This document shows, one piece after another, positions 214 through 4,750 of a stretch of 64,000 bases of DNA (within the stretch, counting starts at the first letter, position 1; each line of letters opens with the position of its first letter). Position numbers and translations under genes: made by a program. The stretch comes from Streptomyces sclerotialus. GTDB lineage: Bacteria; Actinomycetota; Actinomycetes; Streptomycetales; Streptomycetaceae. The DNA is taken from positions 3,124,501-3,188,500 of the forward strand of contig NZ_JBFOHP010000002.1 in assembly GCF_040907265.1 (NCBI RefSeq), read 5' to 3'. The notes below the pieces were generated by a model. That model was given only the letters and a program-made list of their open reading frames with translations, ran no database searches and had not been told where the DNA came from.

Positions 214-1119
214 ATGGACAACAACCTCGTCATCGAAGACGCCGCGACCGCCGGCTTCGACGAGGCACAAGTTCCCCTGTATTACTCACGGAAGACCGCG
301 GACATCCTGCATAAGTACGGCCCCGGTCCACGCATCCACTTCCACATGGGCATGTTCGAGGCGGGTGCCACGCCGAACACCACCGTCTCCCAACGCGTCA
401 TACGCCGCCGCCTCCTGGAGTCCCAGGAGGCCGTGCTGCACCACGCCGCCGCGTCCTGGGGTGTCCCTGCCGCGCCGCCCCGCGACCTCCTCGACATCGG
501 CTGCGGCGTCGGCGGCGGAGCGATCTACTGGGCCCAGGAGTACGGCACCCTGGTCAAAGGGCTGACGGTCACCGGCGAACACGTCCCGATCATGCGGGAC
601 CTCGTCCGCCGGGCCGGCATGCAGAACCGCGTCACCGCCGCGCTCGGCGACATCCACGATTTGCGCGAACAGCACGCGTACGACGCGGCCGTCGCCATCG
701 AGTCCTCCGGCTACATGGACCGCGAGCGGCTGTTCTCCGTCGTCGCCAAGGCGCTGCGACCCGGCGGCTGGTTCGGCATCCAGGAGCACTTCCTCTGCCG
801 GCCGGAGTGGACCGACTTCATCGACGGCTACTACAAGACCCGGCTGGGCACCCTCACCGAGTACATCAACGCGGCGCACGCCGCCGGCTTCGAGCTGGAG
901 CAGGACGAGGACATCACCGACCGGGTCGCGGAGTTCTGGGTGCAGTCCATGGCCTGGACCACCGCCGAACTGGAGAACGCCGACCGCACCGGGGTCCCCT
1001 CTCCCATCCGCCGTGAGCGCCTGATGGAGTCCGAGCGCACCCACGGCAAGCTCTTCCGCATATGGCGGGATCACGCTGTCGAGACCCGCCTGCTGCTCTT
1101 CCGTCTCGGGGACCGCTGA
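214..1119 (+). CDS. SAM-dependent C-methyltransferase, probably of a prenyl diphosphate or terpenoid
   Basis: A 301-residue class I methyltransferase. Motif I ([11 protein letters not shown], residues 92-102) is the SAM-binding glycine loop, GDIHDL (145-150) is the acidic loop, and [13 protein letters not shown] (181-193) is the post-motif. The N-terminal segment [18 protein letters not shown] resembles the entry of the isoprenoid methyltransferases that act on geranyl or farnesyl chains (GPP 2-methyltransferase, SodC and TleD type). That likeness is from memory and unaligned. GGAGATGATTC precedes the ATG as ribosome site. The stop is one base from the terpene synthase start, so the two are co-translated and very likely act in sequence: methylation first, cyclisation second. 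The exact substrate (C10 or C15 diphosphate) cannot be read from the sequence. Confidence 0.8.
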
Positions 1120-1120
1120 C

Positions 1121-2230
1121 ATGGCCACGATAACCGACCGCGGCCGCCCCTCGGCCATAGGCTGGCGGCTACCGCCGTTCTACTGCCCGGTCGAGCGCCG
1201 CACGGACCTGCACGCGCAGGCGGACCTGCTGGAGAAGCGGGCCGTCGAGTGGATCGACGCCTACGGCCTGTACCCCGACCACACCGAACGGGCCTGGGGA
1301 CTCGCCACCCACAGCGCGGAGTTCACCTGCCGGATCATCCCGCGCGGCGCCGAGGACGCCATGCTGCTGTTCATCCAGTGGAACTACTGGGCGAACGCGG
1401 TGGACGACTGGCACGACTCCGGCTCCGACGCCACGGGCACCGCGAAGATCGTCGACCACAGCGCCAGGCTGATCCGCGCCCTGGAGTACCCCGGCTCCGC
1501 CATGCTGCCCTCCAACCCCCTGACACGGGCCCTGGAGGACCTGGTCACCCGGACCCGGGCGCTGCTCACCCCGTACCAGCTCATGCGGTTCATGGACGGC
1601 ACCCGGGACTGGCTCTTCGGAGCGGGCTGGCAGACCTCCAACGCCGAGCGCGGCATCATGCCCTCCCTCAACGACTTCGCGGCCATGACCGTCTCGACCA
1701 ACGGGACGCGCTTCACGCTCGCCTGGTGCGACGCGGCCAACGCCATCGATGTACCCCCGGACGTGCTGTACTCCGCACCCGTGCAGGCCCTCACCGACGC
1801 GGCCGGGTTCGTCGTCAGCAGCGACAACGACCTCTTCTCATACGCCAAGGAGGACCACCTCGACCAGCCCGAGCAGAACCTGATCAACGTCATCGCCCAC
1901 GAGAAGGGCATCACCCCTCTGGAAGCCGTGCCGTACGCGGTAGGCATCCGGGACCGGGCGATGACACTGTTCCTGCGGCTGCGGGAGCAGCTGGGCCGGG
2001 ACGCGGACCCGATGCTGGCGCGCTACCTCGAATCGCTCGGGGACTACGTGTCCGGCTGCATCATCTGGCAGAACGACGCGCCGCGCTACGCCAGCCCGCG
2101 CAACCGCAACCCGCTGCCGGTGCCCGGCGCTTCGTACCACGTCACCTACCGGGACACCCCCAGCGACCTGGCGACGGCTCCGCCTGCCATCCCGTCGATC
2201 ACGTGGTGGTGGGACCAGCTGCGCGACTGA
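1121..2230 (+). CDS. class I terpene synthase (cyclase) partnered with the upstream methyltransferase
   Basis: A 369-residue bacterial terpene synthase. The metal-binding aspartate motif is DDWHD (residues 95-99). The NSE/DTE triad is NDLFSYAKE (236-244; N236, S240, E244), and an RY pair typical of the C-terminus follows in APRYASPRNR. All residues needed for Mg-dependent ionisation of a prenyl diphosphate are present. It lacks the long proline-rich N-terminus and the DDCYCEDHG-like motif of 2-methylisoborneol synthase, so I do not call it that. Pairing with a methyltransferase one base upstream suggests it cyclises a methylated C11 or C16 diphosphate. It converges with the conservon P450; a perfect hairpin separates them. 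Confidence 0.88.
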   Translation: MATITDRGRPSAIGWRLPPFYCPVERRTDLHAQADLLEKRAVEWIDAYGLYPDHTERAWGLATHSAEFTCRIIPRGAEDAMLLFIQWNYWANAVDDWHDSGSDATGTAKIVDHSARLIRALEYPGSAMLPSNPLTRALEDLVTRTRALLTPYQLMRFMDGTRDWLFGAGWQTSNAERGIMPSLNDFAAMTVSTNGTRFTLAWCDAANAIDVPPDVLYSAPVQALTDAAGFVVSSDNDLFSYAKEDHLDQPEQNLINVIAHEKGITPLEAVPYAVGIRDRAMTLFLRLREQLGRDADPMLARYLESLGDYVSGCIIWQNDAPRYASPRNRNPLPVPGASYHVTYRDTPSDLATAPPAIPSITWWWDQLRD

Positions 2231-2280
2231 ACCGCGCATGCCACCGACCGGTGTGCCTCGGCCGTACACCGGAACGGCCC

Positions 2281-2316
2281 GAGCCGGCCGTACGGTCTGC
2301 TCCGTACGGCCGGCTC
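2281..2316. terminator. bidirectional hairpin between terpene synthase and cvnE
   Basis: GAGCCGGCCGTACGG (2281-2295) pairs perfectly with CCGTACGGCCGGCTC (2302-2316) around a 6-base loop. It lies between two convergent genes, so it can stop transcription from both sides. There is no U tract, as is usual for Streptomyces terminators. Confidence 0.8.
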
Positions 2317-2329
2317 GCGCGCCGGGCCT

Positions 2330-3733
2330 TCAGTGACCGCCGAACAGCCGGGCGAGGAAACCGCGCTGCGGACGGTTCCCGGCCGGTGCCGGGGCGGCCT
2401 GCCGCGCGGGCGCGGCGGCCGGCAGCGGCTCGGAGTGGCGCTGCGCGGGCAGCGCTTCCCCGGTGCCCGCCGCCTTCGCCCCGCCCACCGGACGCGGCGT
2501 GAAGACCACCGGCAGCTCGACCAGGTGCCGGGACATCAGCGAGGAGACGTACTGCAGCTCCTCGCCCGGGATCGCCAGCCGGATGTCCGGCAAGCGGTTG
2601 AGCAGCGTGTCGATGCCGGTGTCGGCGATGGCACGGCCGACGTCCTGACCCGGGCACTCGTGCGGGCCGCCACTGAACGCGAGGTGCGAGCGATTGCCGT
2701 GCACGGGGGTGGTGAGGTCGGGTCGGATCTCCGGGTCGACGTTGCCGGCTGCAAGGCCCAGCAGAAGCAGGTCACCCGCCTTGATCTCACGTCCGCCCAG
2801 GGTGGTGTCACCGGTGGCCCAGCGGCCCAGGATCGTGGTGAACGGCGGTTCGTCCCACAGCACCTGCTCCAGCGCGTCCGGCAGCGTCATGTGACCGCCG
2901 GACAGGCTGGCACGGAACCGGCTGTCGGTGAGGACCACCTTCAGGGTGTTCGCGATCAGGTTCGAGGTGCTTTCGAACGCGGCGATCAGAACCAGCCGCA
3001 GATGCTGGACGATCTCCTCGTCGGACAGCTGCGAGGGATGCTCGATCAGCCAGGTGGCGAGATCGTGCCCGGACTGCCCGCGGCGCCGCGCCACCAGGTC
3101 GCGCAACCCCGACATGACGTACTCGTTGCTGGCCACCGCGGTCTCGGTGCCCTTGATCATGTCGCGGGCCGCTTCCACGAGCCGCGGCCCGTACGACTCG
3201 GGCATGCCCACCAGCTGCGTCATCACCAGCATCGGCAGGTGCTCGGCGAACCGGGAGACCAGGTCGGCCTGGCCCGCGCCGGCGAACTCGTCGATCAGCT
3301 GGCGCGCGAAGCGGGTCACGTACCGGCGGATACCGCGCCGGTCGAAGCGGGCCAGCGACTCCGTGACCGCCGTGCGCAGCCGCTCGTGGTCCGAACCGTC
3401 GACGAAGTTGCACACCGGCTGCCAGGCGGTGACCGGGGTCAGCGGGTGGTCGGCCGGCACCTTGCCCTCGCGCAGGGCGCGCCAGCGGCGGGAGTCGCGC
3501 GAGAAGCGGGACGGGGTGCGGGCCACGTCGAGGTTCTCGCGGTGGCCGAGCACCAGCCAGGCCGGCAGGTCCCCCTGCAACAGCACCGGGGCCACAGTGC
3601 CGTGCTCCGCGCGCAGCTTCTCGTACAGGCCCATCGGGTCGGCCTCTGCCTCGGGCCCGTACAGCCGGCGGACGCCGTCGGGTCCCAGACCGTGCGCGGG
3701 GCAGCCCGGGGGCGGGGTGGGGGGCGTGGTCAC
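2330..3733 (-). CDS. cvnE: cytochrome P450 of the conservon (CvnE; CYP157-like, no ExxR motif)
   Basis: A 467-residue P450. The heme-ligand loop FSGGPHECPGQDVG has its cysteine at residue 360, and the I-helix reads AAFESTSN (251-258). The K-helix ExxR that is nearly invariant in P450s is replaced by EQVLW (289-293), immediately before the usual DEPP. The CYP157 family of Streptomyces is known for exactly this change (EQSLW in CYP157C1), so this is a family trait and not damage. About 60 residues beyond the P450 fold are rich in Ala and Pro and end in basic residues. The start overlaps the stop of cvnD by 4 bases. In conservons the P450 is the last gene of a signalling set; its substrate is unknown. 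Confidence 0.9.
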   Translation of the reverse strand: MTTPPTPPPGCPAHGLGPDGVRRLYGPEAEADPMGLYEKLRAEHGTVAPVLLQGDLPAWLVLGHRENLDVARTPSRFSRDSRRWRALREGKVPADHPLTPVTAWQPVCNFVDGSDHERLRTAVTESLARFDRRGIRRYVTRFARQLIDEFAGAGQADLVSRFAEHLPMLVMTQLVGMPESYGPRLVEAARDMIKGTETAVASNEYVMSGLRDLVARRRGQSGHDLATWLIEHPSQLSDEEIVQHLRLVLIAAFESTSNLIANTLKVVLTDSRFRASLSGGHMTLPDALEQVLWDEPPFTTILGRWATGDTTLGGREIKAGDLLLLGLAAGNVDPEIRPDLTTPVHGNRSHLAFSGGPHECPGQDVGRAIADTGIDTLLNRLPDIRLAIPGEELQYVSSLMSRHLVELPVVFTPRPVGGAKAAGTGEALPAQRHSEPLPAAAPARQAAPAPAGNRPQRGFLARLFGGH

Positions 3734-4410
3734 GTTGCCTCCGAACTGACGGCGAGCTGGTGCAAGTAGTGCATGAGCGTCATCAGGACGTCGCGGCTGG
3801 AGGTGCGGAGCCGGGCGTCGCAGTCGACGATCGGGACCTCCGGGGGGAGGTCCAGGGCGCCGCGCAGTTCCTCGACGGGGTACTTCGGTGCCTCCGGGAA
3901 GGAGTTGACCGCGACGACGAAGGGCACGCCGCGCTCCTCAAGGCGGCCGATGACGTCGAAGCTGACCTCCAGGCGGCGGGTGTCGACCAGCACGACGGCG
4001 CCCAGTGCGCCGTCGAACAGGCCGTTCCACAGGAACCAGAAGCGCTGCTGGCCCGGGGTGCCGAAGAGGTACAGCACCAGTTCCTCGTTGAGGCTGATGC
4101 GCCCGAAGTCCATCGCGACGGTCGTGGAGGTCTTGCGTTCCACGCCCAGGGTGTCGTCGACGCCGACACCGGCCTGAGTCATCGTTTCTTCTGTGGTCAG
4201 CGGGCGGATCTCGCTGACCGCGCCCACCAGGGTCGTCTTGCCGACCCCGAAGCCGCCCACGATCACCACCTTGACCGCGGCCGTGGCCGAGTCCGGCAGC
4301 TCGTCCTCGCTCCGCGGCCCGGCGACCGGCTCCGCGGCGAGCGTCCGCCCGGCCACGGGCTGCCCGGCGAGCAGCTGGCCGGCAGTCGGCTCAGAGCTGT
4401 TGAAGTCCAT
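3730..4410 (-). CDS. cvnD: conservon small GTPase (CvnD)
   Basis: A 226-residue Ras-like ATP/GTP-binding protein of the MglA/CvnD family. The P-loop is GGFGVGKTT (52-60). The switch 2 region reads LFGTPGQQRF instead of the canonical DxxGQ, and the NKxD position is AVNSFPEAP, both typical of this divergent family. The first 45 residues are Ala/Gly/Pro-rich and variable. In conservons the GTPase interacts with the roadblock protein and is thought to couple the membrane sensor to an output. It overlaps cvnC by 20 bases and cvnE by 4. Confidence 0.93.
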   Translation of the reverse strand: MDFNSSEPTAGQLLAGQPVAGRTLAAEPVAGPRSEDELPDSATAAVKVVIVGGFGVGKTTLVGAVSEIRPLTTEETMTQAGVGVDDTLGVERKTSTTVAMDFGRISLNEELVLYLFGTPGQQRFWFLWNGLFDGALGAVVLVDTRRLEVSFDVIGRLEERGVPFVVAVNSFPEAPKYPVEELRGALDLPPEVPIVDCDARLRTSSRDVLMTLMHYLHQLAVSSEAT

Positions 4411-4750
4411 GGATCACCGCCTCGATAAGGGAACGGTCCGGAAGTTCTGCGGGCGGTACGGGGGCACGTGCCACCACCCGCCCGTCGGCCAGCAGGTCAC
4501 CCAGGAGCACGGTGACCACGCTGACCGGAAGCTTCAGGTAGGCGGAGAGTTCCGCCACCGACAGCGGGGAGTGGCACAGCCGCATGATCGCGGCGTGCTC
4601 GGGCTGCATGCCTGGTCTCGGCGCAGCCTTGGCCACGATCAGCGTGACCAGGTCGAGGGAGAAGGTGTGCGCGGCGCCGGTGCGCCCGCCGGTGATCACG
4701 TAGAGCCGCTCGGGGCTCTGGTCCTCCCAATCCTGGCCCGCTCCGCTCAT
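4391..4750 (-). CDS. cvnC: conservon DUF742 protein (CvnC)
   Basis: A 119-residue DUF742 protein with the family landmarks RLYVITGGRTGAA near the N-terminus, ALPHTF-like HTFSLDLVTLI, and a winged-helix-like segment (LCHSPLSVAELSAYLKLPVS). Its small size and its position between the roadblock and GTPase genes match CvnC of Streptomyces conservons. The function is thought to be as an adaptor in the CvnA-D complex. It overlaps cvnB by 4 bases (ATGA), so translation is coupled. Confidence 0.92.
   Translation of the reverse strand: MSGAGQDWEDQSPERLYVITGGRTGAAHTFSLDLVTLIVAKAAPRPGMQPEHAAIMRLCHSPLSVAELSAYLKLPVSVVTVLLGDLLADGRVVARAPVPPAELPDRSLIEAVIHGLQQL

What the first reader, a model, noticed from the sequence alone, without database searches (positions are those of the whole stretch)
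214..2230. Methyltransferase-terpene synthase pair that should make a non-canonical (C11 or C16) terpenoid
The two genes are one base apart. The synthase has intact DDWHD and NDLFSYAKE motifs and the methyltransferase has intact SAM motifs. Known precedents (GPP 2-methyltransferase with 2-methylisoborneol synthase; SodC with SodD) combine these activities to make methylated terpenes. This synthase lacks the 2-MIB synthase N-terminus and motif, so the product is probably different.
Basis: partly seen in the sequence, partly recalled or inferred. Interest (0 to 1): 0.75.

Follow-up and report, generated by a model that had tools for sequence, protein, structure and literature searches.

The report
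C16 terpene genes beside signalling operon
A Streptomyces-type soil bacterium carries a two-gene pathway that very probably adds a methyl group to a common terpene precursor and folds it into a 16-carbon terpene, a recently described pathway; what looks new is that in the relatives examined these genes sit next to a G-protein-like signalling operon, which suggests that the terpene may be a signal.

Summary
Both genes are real, intact and one base apart. The methyltransferase is a close relative (72% identity, 11 of 11 published pocket residues kept) of the crystallised C6-FPP methyltransferase SvaMT, not of GPP 2-methyltransferase. The cyclase falls in the SvaTC/SluTC clade. So the pair should turn FPP into prekantenol diphosphate and then a C16 germacrane- or eudesmane-type product: a known pathway, here in a subclade without a characterised product. 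Its nearest relative (S. violens, 91%) appears to be an enzyme reported inactive on GPP, FPP, GGPP and GFPP, as expected if the true substrate is methylated.

In 21 of 21 Streptomyces loci with enough sequence the pair lies beside a conservon (CvnA-D, a Ras-like GTPase operon) with an EXXR-less CYP157-like P450 (CvnE). In 18 genomes, CvnE-type conservons lie within 5 kb of a terpene synthase in 9 of 45 cases, other conservons in 1 of 105; several synthase clades are involved. I infer that CvnE senses, or oxidises, the terpene made next door. I found no report of this, but the key homoterpene paper was not available.

The parts
214..1119 (+). SvaMT-type C6-FPP methyltransferase (301 aa)
   Evidence: 485.8 bits to PDB 9TB4 'C6-FPP methytransferase'; 217 of 301 positions identical to S. 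varsoviensis P0177; 11 of 11 published pocket/catalytic residues identical
1121..2230 (+). SvaTC/SluTC-clade class I terpene cyclase (369 aa), DDWHD at 95, NDLFSYAKE at 236
   Evidence: Pfam PF19086; ML tree clade with SvaTC and SluTC, SH-aLRT 99; beside an SvaMT-type MT at 22 of 22 places, window included
2277..2320 (.). inverted repeat (19-nt arms, 95% complementary, 6-nt loop) between the convergent cyclase and P450 genes, probable two-way terminator
   Evidence: the terminator role is inference
2330..3733 (-). CvnE: CYP157-like cytochrome P450, EQVLW in place of EXXR, haem Cys present (FSGGPHECPG)
   Evidence: Pfam p450; no Arg at the EXXR position (W) in 80 of 80 CvnE aligned, haem Cys in 80 of 80; CYP157 EQSLW/EQILW precedent in PMC3599690 (passages)
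3730..4410 (-). CvnD: small Ras-like GTPase of the conservon
   Evidence: Pfam ATP_bind_1, Ras
4391..4750 (-). CvnC: DUF742 protein
   Evidence: Pfam PF05331
4747..5154 (-). CvnB: roadblock/LC7 protein
   Evidence: Pfam PF03259
5151..7004 (-). CvnA: histidine-kinase-like protein without an extracellular sensor domain (start codon uncertain)
   Evidence: Pfam HATPase_c only, no NIT domain; two adjoining hydrophobic segments at about residues 110-162 with almost nothing between them

Best explanation
The two genes are a homosesquiterpene pathway of the SvaMT/SvaTC family. The methyltransferase transfers CH3 from SAM to C6 of FPP and a glutamate (E163 here) takes a proton from C8, giving prekantenol diphosphate (C16). 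The cyclase ionises this substrate and closes it to a germacrane- or eudesmane-type C16 product (mass about 218 as a hydrocarbon, 236 as an alcohol). Shown here: gene integrity, family membership by tree, kept pocket residues, constant pairing. Inferred from characterised homologues: substrate, regiochemistry, skeleton. The exact product is unknown. The pair forms one conserved locus with a CvnE-type conservon (shown); that CvnE and CvnA-D sense or process the terpene is inference, with a separate confidence of about 0.5 for any direct functional link.
For: Methyltransferase: top PDB hit 9TB4, full length; 72.1% identity to S. varsoviensis P0177; Y37, F45, M47, E165, Q192, H194, I205, Y209, T211, F243, W244 all kept, whereas BezA (C6-GPP-MT) differs at six of the eleven. 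Y37, E165, H194, Y209, T211, F243 and W244 are invariant in 121 of 121 aligned proteins; published F45, E165, H194, Y209 and W244 variants made almost no or no product (PMC12929941, parts 1-3 of 4 read). Cyclase: 52 sampled family rows including SvaTC (P0258) and SluTC (P0031) form one side of a branch, SH-aLRT 99; gap between family members (51% or more, each beside an MT) and the next synthase found (39%). S. violens cyclase reported inactive and S. morookaense enzyme weak on FPP (PMC10509563 passages), the latter reported to cyclise the methylated substrate (PMC12929941). Locus: all five conservon genes beside the pair in 21 of 21 loci with enough contig, in 12 unrelated flanking groups of 20 loci on each side.
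Against: No activity was measured. The window cyclase sits in a subclade with no member known to me to act on prekantenol diphosphate; the nearest tested member was inactive on all substrates tried, which could also mean a dead enzyme, as its authors proposed. The primary paper (Reuter 2024) was not held. The tree is a quick ML tree with long outgroup branches and warnings about them. M47 is kept in only 49 of 121, so it is not diagnostic.
Confidence: 0.87

Rival explanations
1. The methyltransferase acts on GPP (C2 like GPPMT, or C6 like BezA) and the pair makes a C11 terpene.
For: Same superfamily; BezA is the second PDB hit (201.6 bits) and the GPPMT model matches weakly (40.6 bits).
Against: GPPMT cut-off is 400 bits. 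F45, Q192, H194, I205 and Y209, which shape the FPP pocket, are kept here and changed in BezA. The cyclase is in the SvaTC clade, not near the genome's own 2-MIB-type synthase.
Confidence: 0.05
2. The cyclase is a decaying gene with no useful activity, as was suggested for this branch in 2023.
For: S. violens and S. natalensis relatives inactive with GPP, FPP, GGPP and GFPP, and motifs deviate in the branch (PMC10509563 passages).
Against: Window copy intact with both metal motifs; an MT partner is kept at 22 of 22 places; the methylated substrate was not among those tested in that work, and the S. morookaense enzyme of that branch is reported to cyclise it (PMC12929941).
Confidence: 0.06
3. 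The link to the conservon is only neighbourhood: terpene genes tend to settle beside this operon, or both ride on the same mobile segments.
For: MT, cyclase, P450, CvnD and CvnA distances are correlated (Mantel r 0.74-0.88), which linked inheritance alone would give; 29 of 40 CvnE places in an unselected sample have no terpene synthase in the stretch seen, and 20 of those sit beside an RluA-type gene with shared neighbours.
Against: Terpene synthases of several clades sit in the same spot, the linkage persists in different chromosomal contexts (12 groups of 20 loci) and through one rearrangement (L045), and it is specific to CvnE-type conservons at short range (9 of 45 against 1 of 105 within 5 kb).
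Confidence: 0.4
4. CvnE is a tailoring oxygenase that hydroxylates the C16 terpene, and the conservon merely shares its transcript.
For: Haem Cys kept in 80 of 80, and Glu plus Thr at the I-helix acid-alcohol positions in at least 58 of 80, window included. Some close CvnE-like P450s beside a terpene synthase show no conservon genes in the stretch fetched (L149, L177, L182), as expected of a tailoring enzyme rather than of a conservon subunit.
Against: EXXR Arg missing in 80 of 80; here the P450 gene overlaps cvnD by 4 bases and is convergent with the cyclase; CvnE is present at many conservons without a terpene synthase nearby.
Confidence: 0.33

Closest known systems
SvaMT / C6-FPP-MT with SvaTC, SmoTC, SluTC ('humanists homoterpenes', Actinomycetota)
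   Same: Same MT family and pocket residues, same cyclase clade, same gene pairing
   Different: Window cyclase lies in an S. violens/S. gobiensis subclade with no product known to me; SmoTC itself was not in the tree
BezA (C6-GPP methyltransferase, benzastatin)
   Same: Second closest solved structure, same catalytic Glu and Trp
   Different: 43% identity over 251 positions; six of eleven FPP-pocket positions differ
GPP 2-methyltransferase with 2-MIB synthase
   Same: Same logic: methylate the diphosphate, then cyclise
   Different: Far below the family cut-off; separate branch; a separate pair of this type is in the same genome
SodC/SodD (sodorifen)
   Same: Methylated FPP-derived precursor, C16 product (PMC12723460, part 1 of 3 and passages)
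   Different: Described there as methylation with precyclisation; not compared directly here
CvnE-type conservon (actinobacterial G protein system; cvn9-12 of S. coelicolor, PMC8510531 passages)
   Same: CvnA-D order, sensor-less CvnA, EXXR-less CYP157-like CvnE
   Different: Here flanked by a terpene pathway; the accounts seen in passages leave CvnE's role open
Indole prenyltransferase clusters with conservons (PMC3617294, passages)
   Same: Small prenyl-derived metabolite genes tied to a conservon, some with a P450
   Different: Prenylated indole, not a terpene; its authors already speculated on signalling

Membership tests
SvaMT (C6-FPP methyltransferase) | Sequence family of 9TB4 | tested here: met
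   485.8 bits, full length; 72.1% identity
SvaMT (C6-FPP methyltransferase) | Catalytic Glu165-His194 and aromatic FPP pocket | tested here: met
   11 of 11 residues identical
SvaMT (C6-FPP methyltransferase) | Makes prekantenol diphosphate from FPP | not testable with these tools
   needs enzyme assay
SvaTC family | Clade with SvaTC and SluTC | tested here: met
   SH-aLRT 99, 52 sampled rows; SvaTC and SluTC identified by species and clade, not by accession
SvaTC family | Encoded beside an SvaMT-type MT | tested here: met
   window, and 22 of 22 cyclase places with the window counted
SvaTC family | Cyclises prekantenol diphosphate | not testable with these tools
   needs enzyme assay
GPPMT/2-MIB synthase | MT passes the GPPMT model | tested here: not met
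   40.6 bits, cut-off 400
GPPMT/2-MIB synthase | Cyclase clusters with 2-MIB synthase | tested here: not met
   genome's own 2-MIB-type synthase is a far branch
BezA (C6-GPP-MT) | BezA-type substrate pocket | tested here: not met
   six of eleven pocket positions differ
SodC/SodD | Sequence clade of SodC | not tested
   no SodC sequence was in hand
CvnE-type conservon | cvnA-B-C-D operon with P450 accessory | tested here: met
CvnE-type conservon | CvnA lacks extracellular NIT sensor | tested here: met
   no NIT hit; no room between hydrophobic segments
CvnE-type conservon | CYP157-type P450 without EXXR, haem Cys present | tested here: met
   CYP157 description from PMC3599690 (passages)

The most novel reading that the evidence does not exclude
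CvnE is not a tailoring enzyme but a haem-thiolate terpene receptor: an EXXR-less P450 that binds the (homo)sesquiterpene made by its neighbour and reports it to the sensor-less CvnA, so that MT-TC plus CvnA-E is a complete volatile-signal circuit (maker and receiver). The extra methyl group would make the signal specific to strains that carry the pair, and the other synthases found beside CvnE, among them named eudesmane makers, would be other dialects of the same system.
Probability: 0.2. Interest if true: 0.88.

Novelty: new member of a known kind. Interest (0 to 1): 0.5.

Why it matters
The pair itself adds an uncharacterised subclade to a recently described pathway and offers a reason why its nearest tested relative looked dead: the methylated substrate was not among those offered. 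The linkage matters more: how CvnE works and what feeds the sensory input of conservons is said to be unknown or largely unexplored in a 2026 paper (PMC13343842, passages). A terpene made next door is a concrete candidate ligand that can be tested with a binding assay and two deletions.

Tried and rejected
C11 product and GPPMT membership: rejected on model score, pocket residues and tree. BezA membership: rejected on pocket residues. Upstream genes as part of the pathway: rejected, since the flanks beyond the MT fall into 12 groups of 20 loci. An earlier flank comparison with my own gene caller gave more groups (18 and 20 of 22) but missed the MT gene in 7 loci; I use instead. A first terpene-synthase HMM was contaminated by fused reading frames and was rebuilt from trimmed domains. 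The idea that every CvnE has a terpene synthase beside it: rejected, 11 of 40 in the unselected sample. The first P450 sample that was answered (37 genomes) was partly chosen from genomes with a synthase hit, so its loci (L164-L183) serve as examples, not for rates. The one genome-contig scan found a single locus (S. violens). No row named S. morookaense appears among the 120 proteins listed by either cyclase search, so SmoTC is not in the tree. No structure was predicted: the MT has a 72% identical solved homologue.

Full report
OBSERVATION. Pfam calls a class I SAM methyltransferase and a class I terpene synthase.

METHYLTRANSFERASE. The best solved-structure match is 9TB4, 'C6-FPP methytransferase', over the whole length (485.8 bits); BezA follows with 201.6 bits and GPP 2-methyltransferase with 35.9 bits or less. 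Against the GPPMT NCBIfam model it scores 40.6 bits with a cut-off of 400. The structure paper (PMC12929941; outline and parts 1-3 of 4 read) names the residues that hold FPP and do the chemistry. All eleven that I checked are identical here: Y35, F43, M45, E163, Q190, H192, I203, Y207, T209, F241, W242 in window numbering. BezA differs at six of them. In 121 aligned proteins (window plus the 120 listed homologues of 500 found) Tyr37, Glu165, His194, Tyr209, Thr211, Phe243 and Trp244 are invariant; Phe45 is kept in 117, Gln192 in 115, Ile205 in 110, while Met47 is kept in only 49 (61 have Val).

CYCLASE. In a quick ML tree of 87 rows (52 family rows, the window included, chosen from 150 listed relatives; 22 synthases near CvnE; 13 others) the family is one side of a branch with SH-aLRT 99, holds SvaTC (P0258) and SluTC (P0031), and excludes the genome's 2-MIB-type and geosmin-type synthases. 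The program warned of long outgroup branches. P0031 and P0258 are identified with SluTC and SvaTC by species and clade, not by accession. The window protein pairs with S. violens (P0001), then with P0004 and P0010, and lies near S. gobiensis; I know of no product for these. PMC10509563 (passages) tested S. violens NRRL ISP-5597 WP_030249874 from one branch with S. natalensis, S. subrutilus, S. ficellus and S. morookaense enzymes, found it inactive on GPP, FPP, GGPP and GFPP, reported weak hedycaryol or germacrene A formation for others, and proposed pseudogenisation. I take WP_030249874 to be P0001 because strain and branch agree; the accession could not be checked. PMC12929941 reports that the S. 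morookaense enzyme cyclises methylated FPP to jaegerol. The simplest reading is that the natural substrate was missing from the 2023 assays.

PAIRING. Among 392 sampled Streptomyces genomes (window's included; five candidates scored per genome), the SvaMT query gave 23 places in 22 genomes at E 1e-60 or better, and the window cyclase gave 22 places of 51% identity or more in 21 genomes, then nothing until 39%. All 22 cyclases lie next to one of those methyltransferases (and the window). The one methyltransferase without this cyclase (G337, 53% identity, L063) is in another gene neighbourhood.

CONSERVON. Beside the cyclase, convergent and separated by an inverted repeat (2277-2320), lies an operon CvnA-B-C-D-E (7004 down to 2330). 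CvnE is a P450 with EQVLW where EXXR is expected and an intact haem cysteine; W instead of Arg and the Cys are found in 80 of 80 CvnE aligned. PMC3599690 (passages) describes the missing EXXR as a CYP157 trait and these genes as linked to conservons. CvnA shows no NIT domain and almost no extracellular loop, which fits the pattern in PMC13343842 (passages) that CvnE and CvnF accompany sensor-less CvnA and may be the sensory input. All five conservon genes are present in 21 of 21 MT-TC loci with enough sequence (window plus L042-L062 without L053, whose contig ends); 20 are convergent, L045 is rearranged. Flanks of up to 6 kb beyond the unit fall into 12 groups of 20 loci on either side, so the unit has stayed together in different chromosomal settings. 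Cyclase and CvnE identities correlate (Mantel r 0.88, 21 loci), which shows co-inheritance but not function.

IS IT GENERAL? In 40 consecutive unselected genomes, P450s at E 1e-100 or better gave 50 places; I fetched 40 of these (not G137's MT-TC locus, already in hand, and not the nine weakest). A class I terpene synthase lies within about 9.5 kb, or within the contig where that ends sooner, in 11 of 40, against roughly 1% expected for random 10-kb neighbourhoods. Conservon genes are visible in 36 of the 40; among these 36 a synthase is near in 9. Of the four without, L143's contig ends, while L133, L145 and L149 show none, and L149 has a synthase. Of the 29 places without a synthase, 20 lie beside an RluA-type pseudouridine synthase and 9 beside other genes.

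CONTROL. I took 18 genomes of at most three contigs (all 17 such genomes of the unselected 40, and the window's own): 150 CvnD genes are listed of 200 matches, the weakest being cut, 98 terpene-synthase domain hits in 78 genes, and CvnE-like P450s. Conservons with CvnE are within 5 kb of a synthase in 9 of 45, those without in 1 of 105 (Fisher p 8e-5); within 10 kb 9 of 45 and 3 of 105 (p 0.001), where random placement gives 0.41 of 45 and 1.0 of 105. Leaving out by hand the window's genome and G137, both with the MT-TC pair, 7 of 40 against 1 of 94 within 5 kb (p 9e-4). At 25 kb the difference is no longer significant (10 of 45 against 11 of 105, p 0.07), partly because two-domain (geosmin-type) synthases lie 7-25 kb from conservons; the link is one of direct neighbours. 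These loci are not phylogenetically independent, so the p-values are optimistic.

CLADES AND CHEMOTYPE. The 22 synthases near CvnE (11 unselected, 11 from the biased sample) need 6 label changes on the tree, at least 3 forced by starred branches, so several synthase clades have come to lie there. The CvnE of MT-TC loci cluster (3 changes against a shuffled mean of 19.0), as do others by neighbour type. I scanned 17 of these 22 and L087. Passing an NCBIfam cut-off are selina-4(15),7(11)-diene synthases (L087, L167, L174, L177, L182) and 7-epi-alpha-eudesmol synthases (L161, L163; L159 misses by 0.1 bit); the other ten pass none. All the selinadiene synthases come from loci picked through similarity to the window cyclase, so their number says nothing about rates; in the unselected sample only the eudesmol synthases are named. 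L177 and L182 show no conservon genes in the stretch fetched, L167 and L174 do; L087 and L088 show CvnE and L092 CvnD in their short flanks. That both named families and the SvaTC family make eudesmane-type skeletons is from PMC12929941 for the last and recalled chemistry for the other two. The genome's own second CvnE conservon sits beside an indole prenyltransferase (PF11991), as in the clusters of PMC3617294 (passages), whose authors already suggested signalling.

MECHANISM. Shown: sequence relations, kept residues, pairing, linkage. Inferred from homologues: C6 methylation of FPP, C16 cyclisation. Inferred with less certainty: CvnE handles the terpene, either as sensor or as oxygenase. Against the sensor reading stand the orphan CvnE-like P450s beside synthases and the many CvnE conservons without one.

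NOVELTY. The pathway is known (Reuter 2024, nothing seen; cited in PMC12929941 and in PMC12723460, of which part 1 of 3 and passages were read). Searches for conservons with terpenes showed no report of the linkage; searches list only 20 of many papers. Of the 11 papers that hold both words anywhere I looked at passages of five (PMC8510531; PMC13343842; PMC6428758; PMC3617294; PMC13367870) and did not open the other six. Subscription literature and Reuter 2024 may describe it.

Noticed in passing
G000 C2:242830-245381 (locus L038): A separate GPPMT-like methyltransferase and 2-MIB-synthase-like pair in the same genome, a useful internal control.
   Followed up: partly
G000 C2:7457598-7459618 (locus L164): Second close CvnE-type conservon of the genome, beside an indole prenyltransferase (PF11991).
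   Followed up: partly
L160 and L162, gene convergent with CvnE (636 and 576 aa as called): A protein family (the L160 copy has no Pfam match) occupies the terpene-synthase position beside CvnE that are sisters of the 7-epi-alpha-eudesmol-linked ones; possibly an undescribed enzyme.
   Followed up: no
L149, L177, L182 (also L133, L145, L172, L178): Close CvnE-like P450s with no conservon genes in the stretch fetched; the first three lie near a terpene synthase.
   Followed up: no
L063 (G337 C26): A 53% identical methyltransferase without the usual cyclase or conservon; neighbours are a 23% similar synthase-like frame and a distant P450.
   Followed up: no
G129 C1:5673279-5674906: A terpene synthase lies directly after CvnD with no CvnE between, as if it had taken the P450's place; L092 looks similar.
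   Followed up: no
P0252: A cyclase relative (64% to P0241) is attributed to Paraburkholderia on a 4.6 kb contig: transfer or contamination.
   Followed up: no
G118, G136 and further genomes: Two-domain (geosmin-type) synthases often lie 7-25 kb from a conservon, mostly one without CvnE.
   Followed up: no
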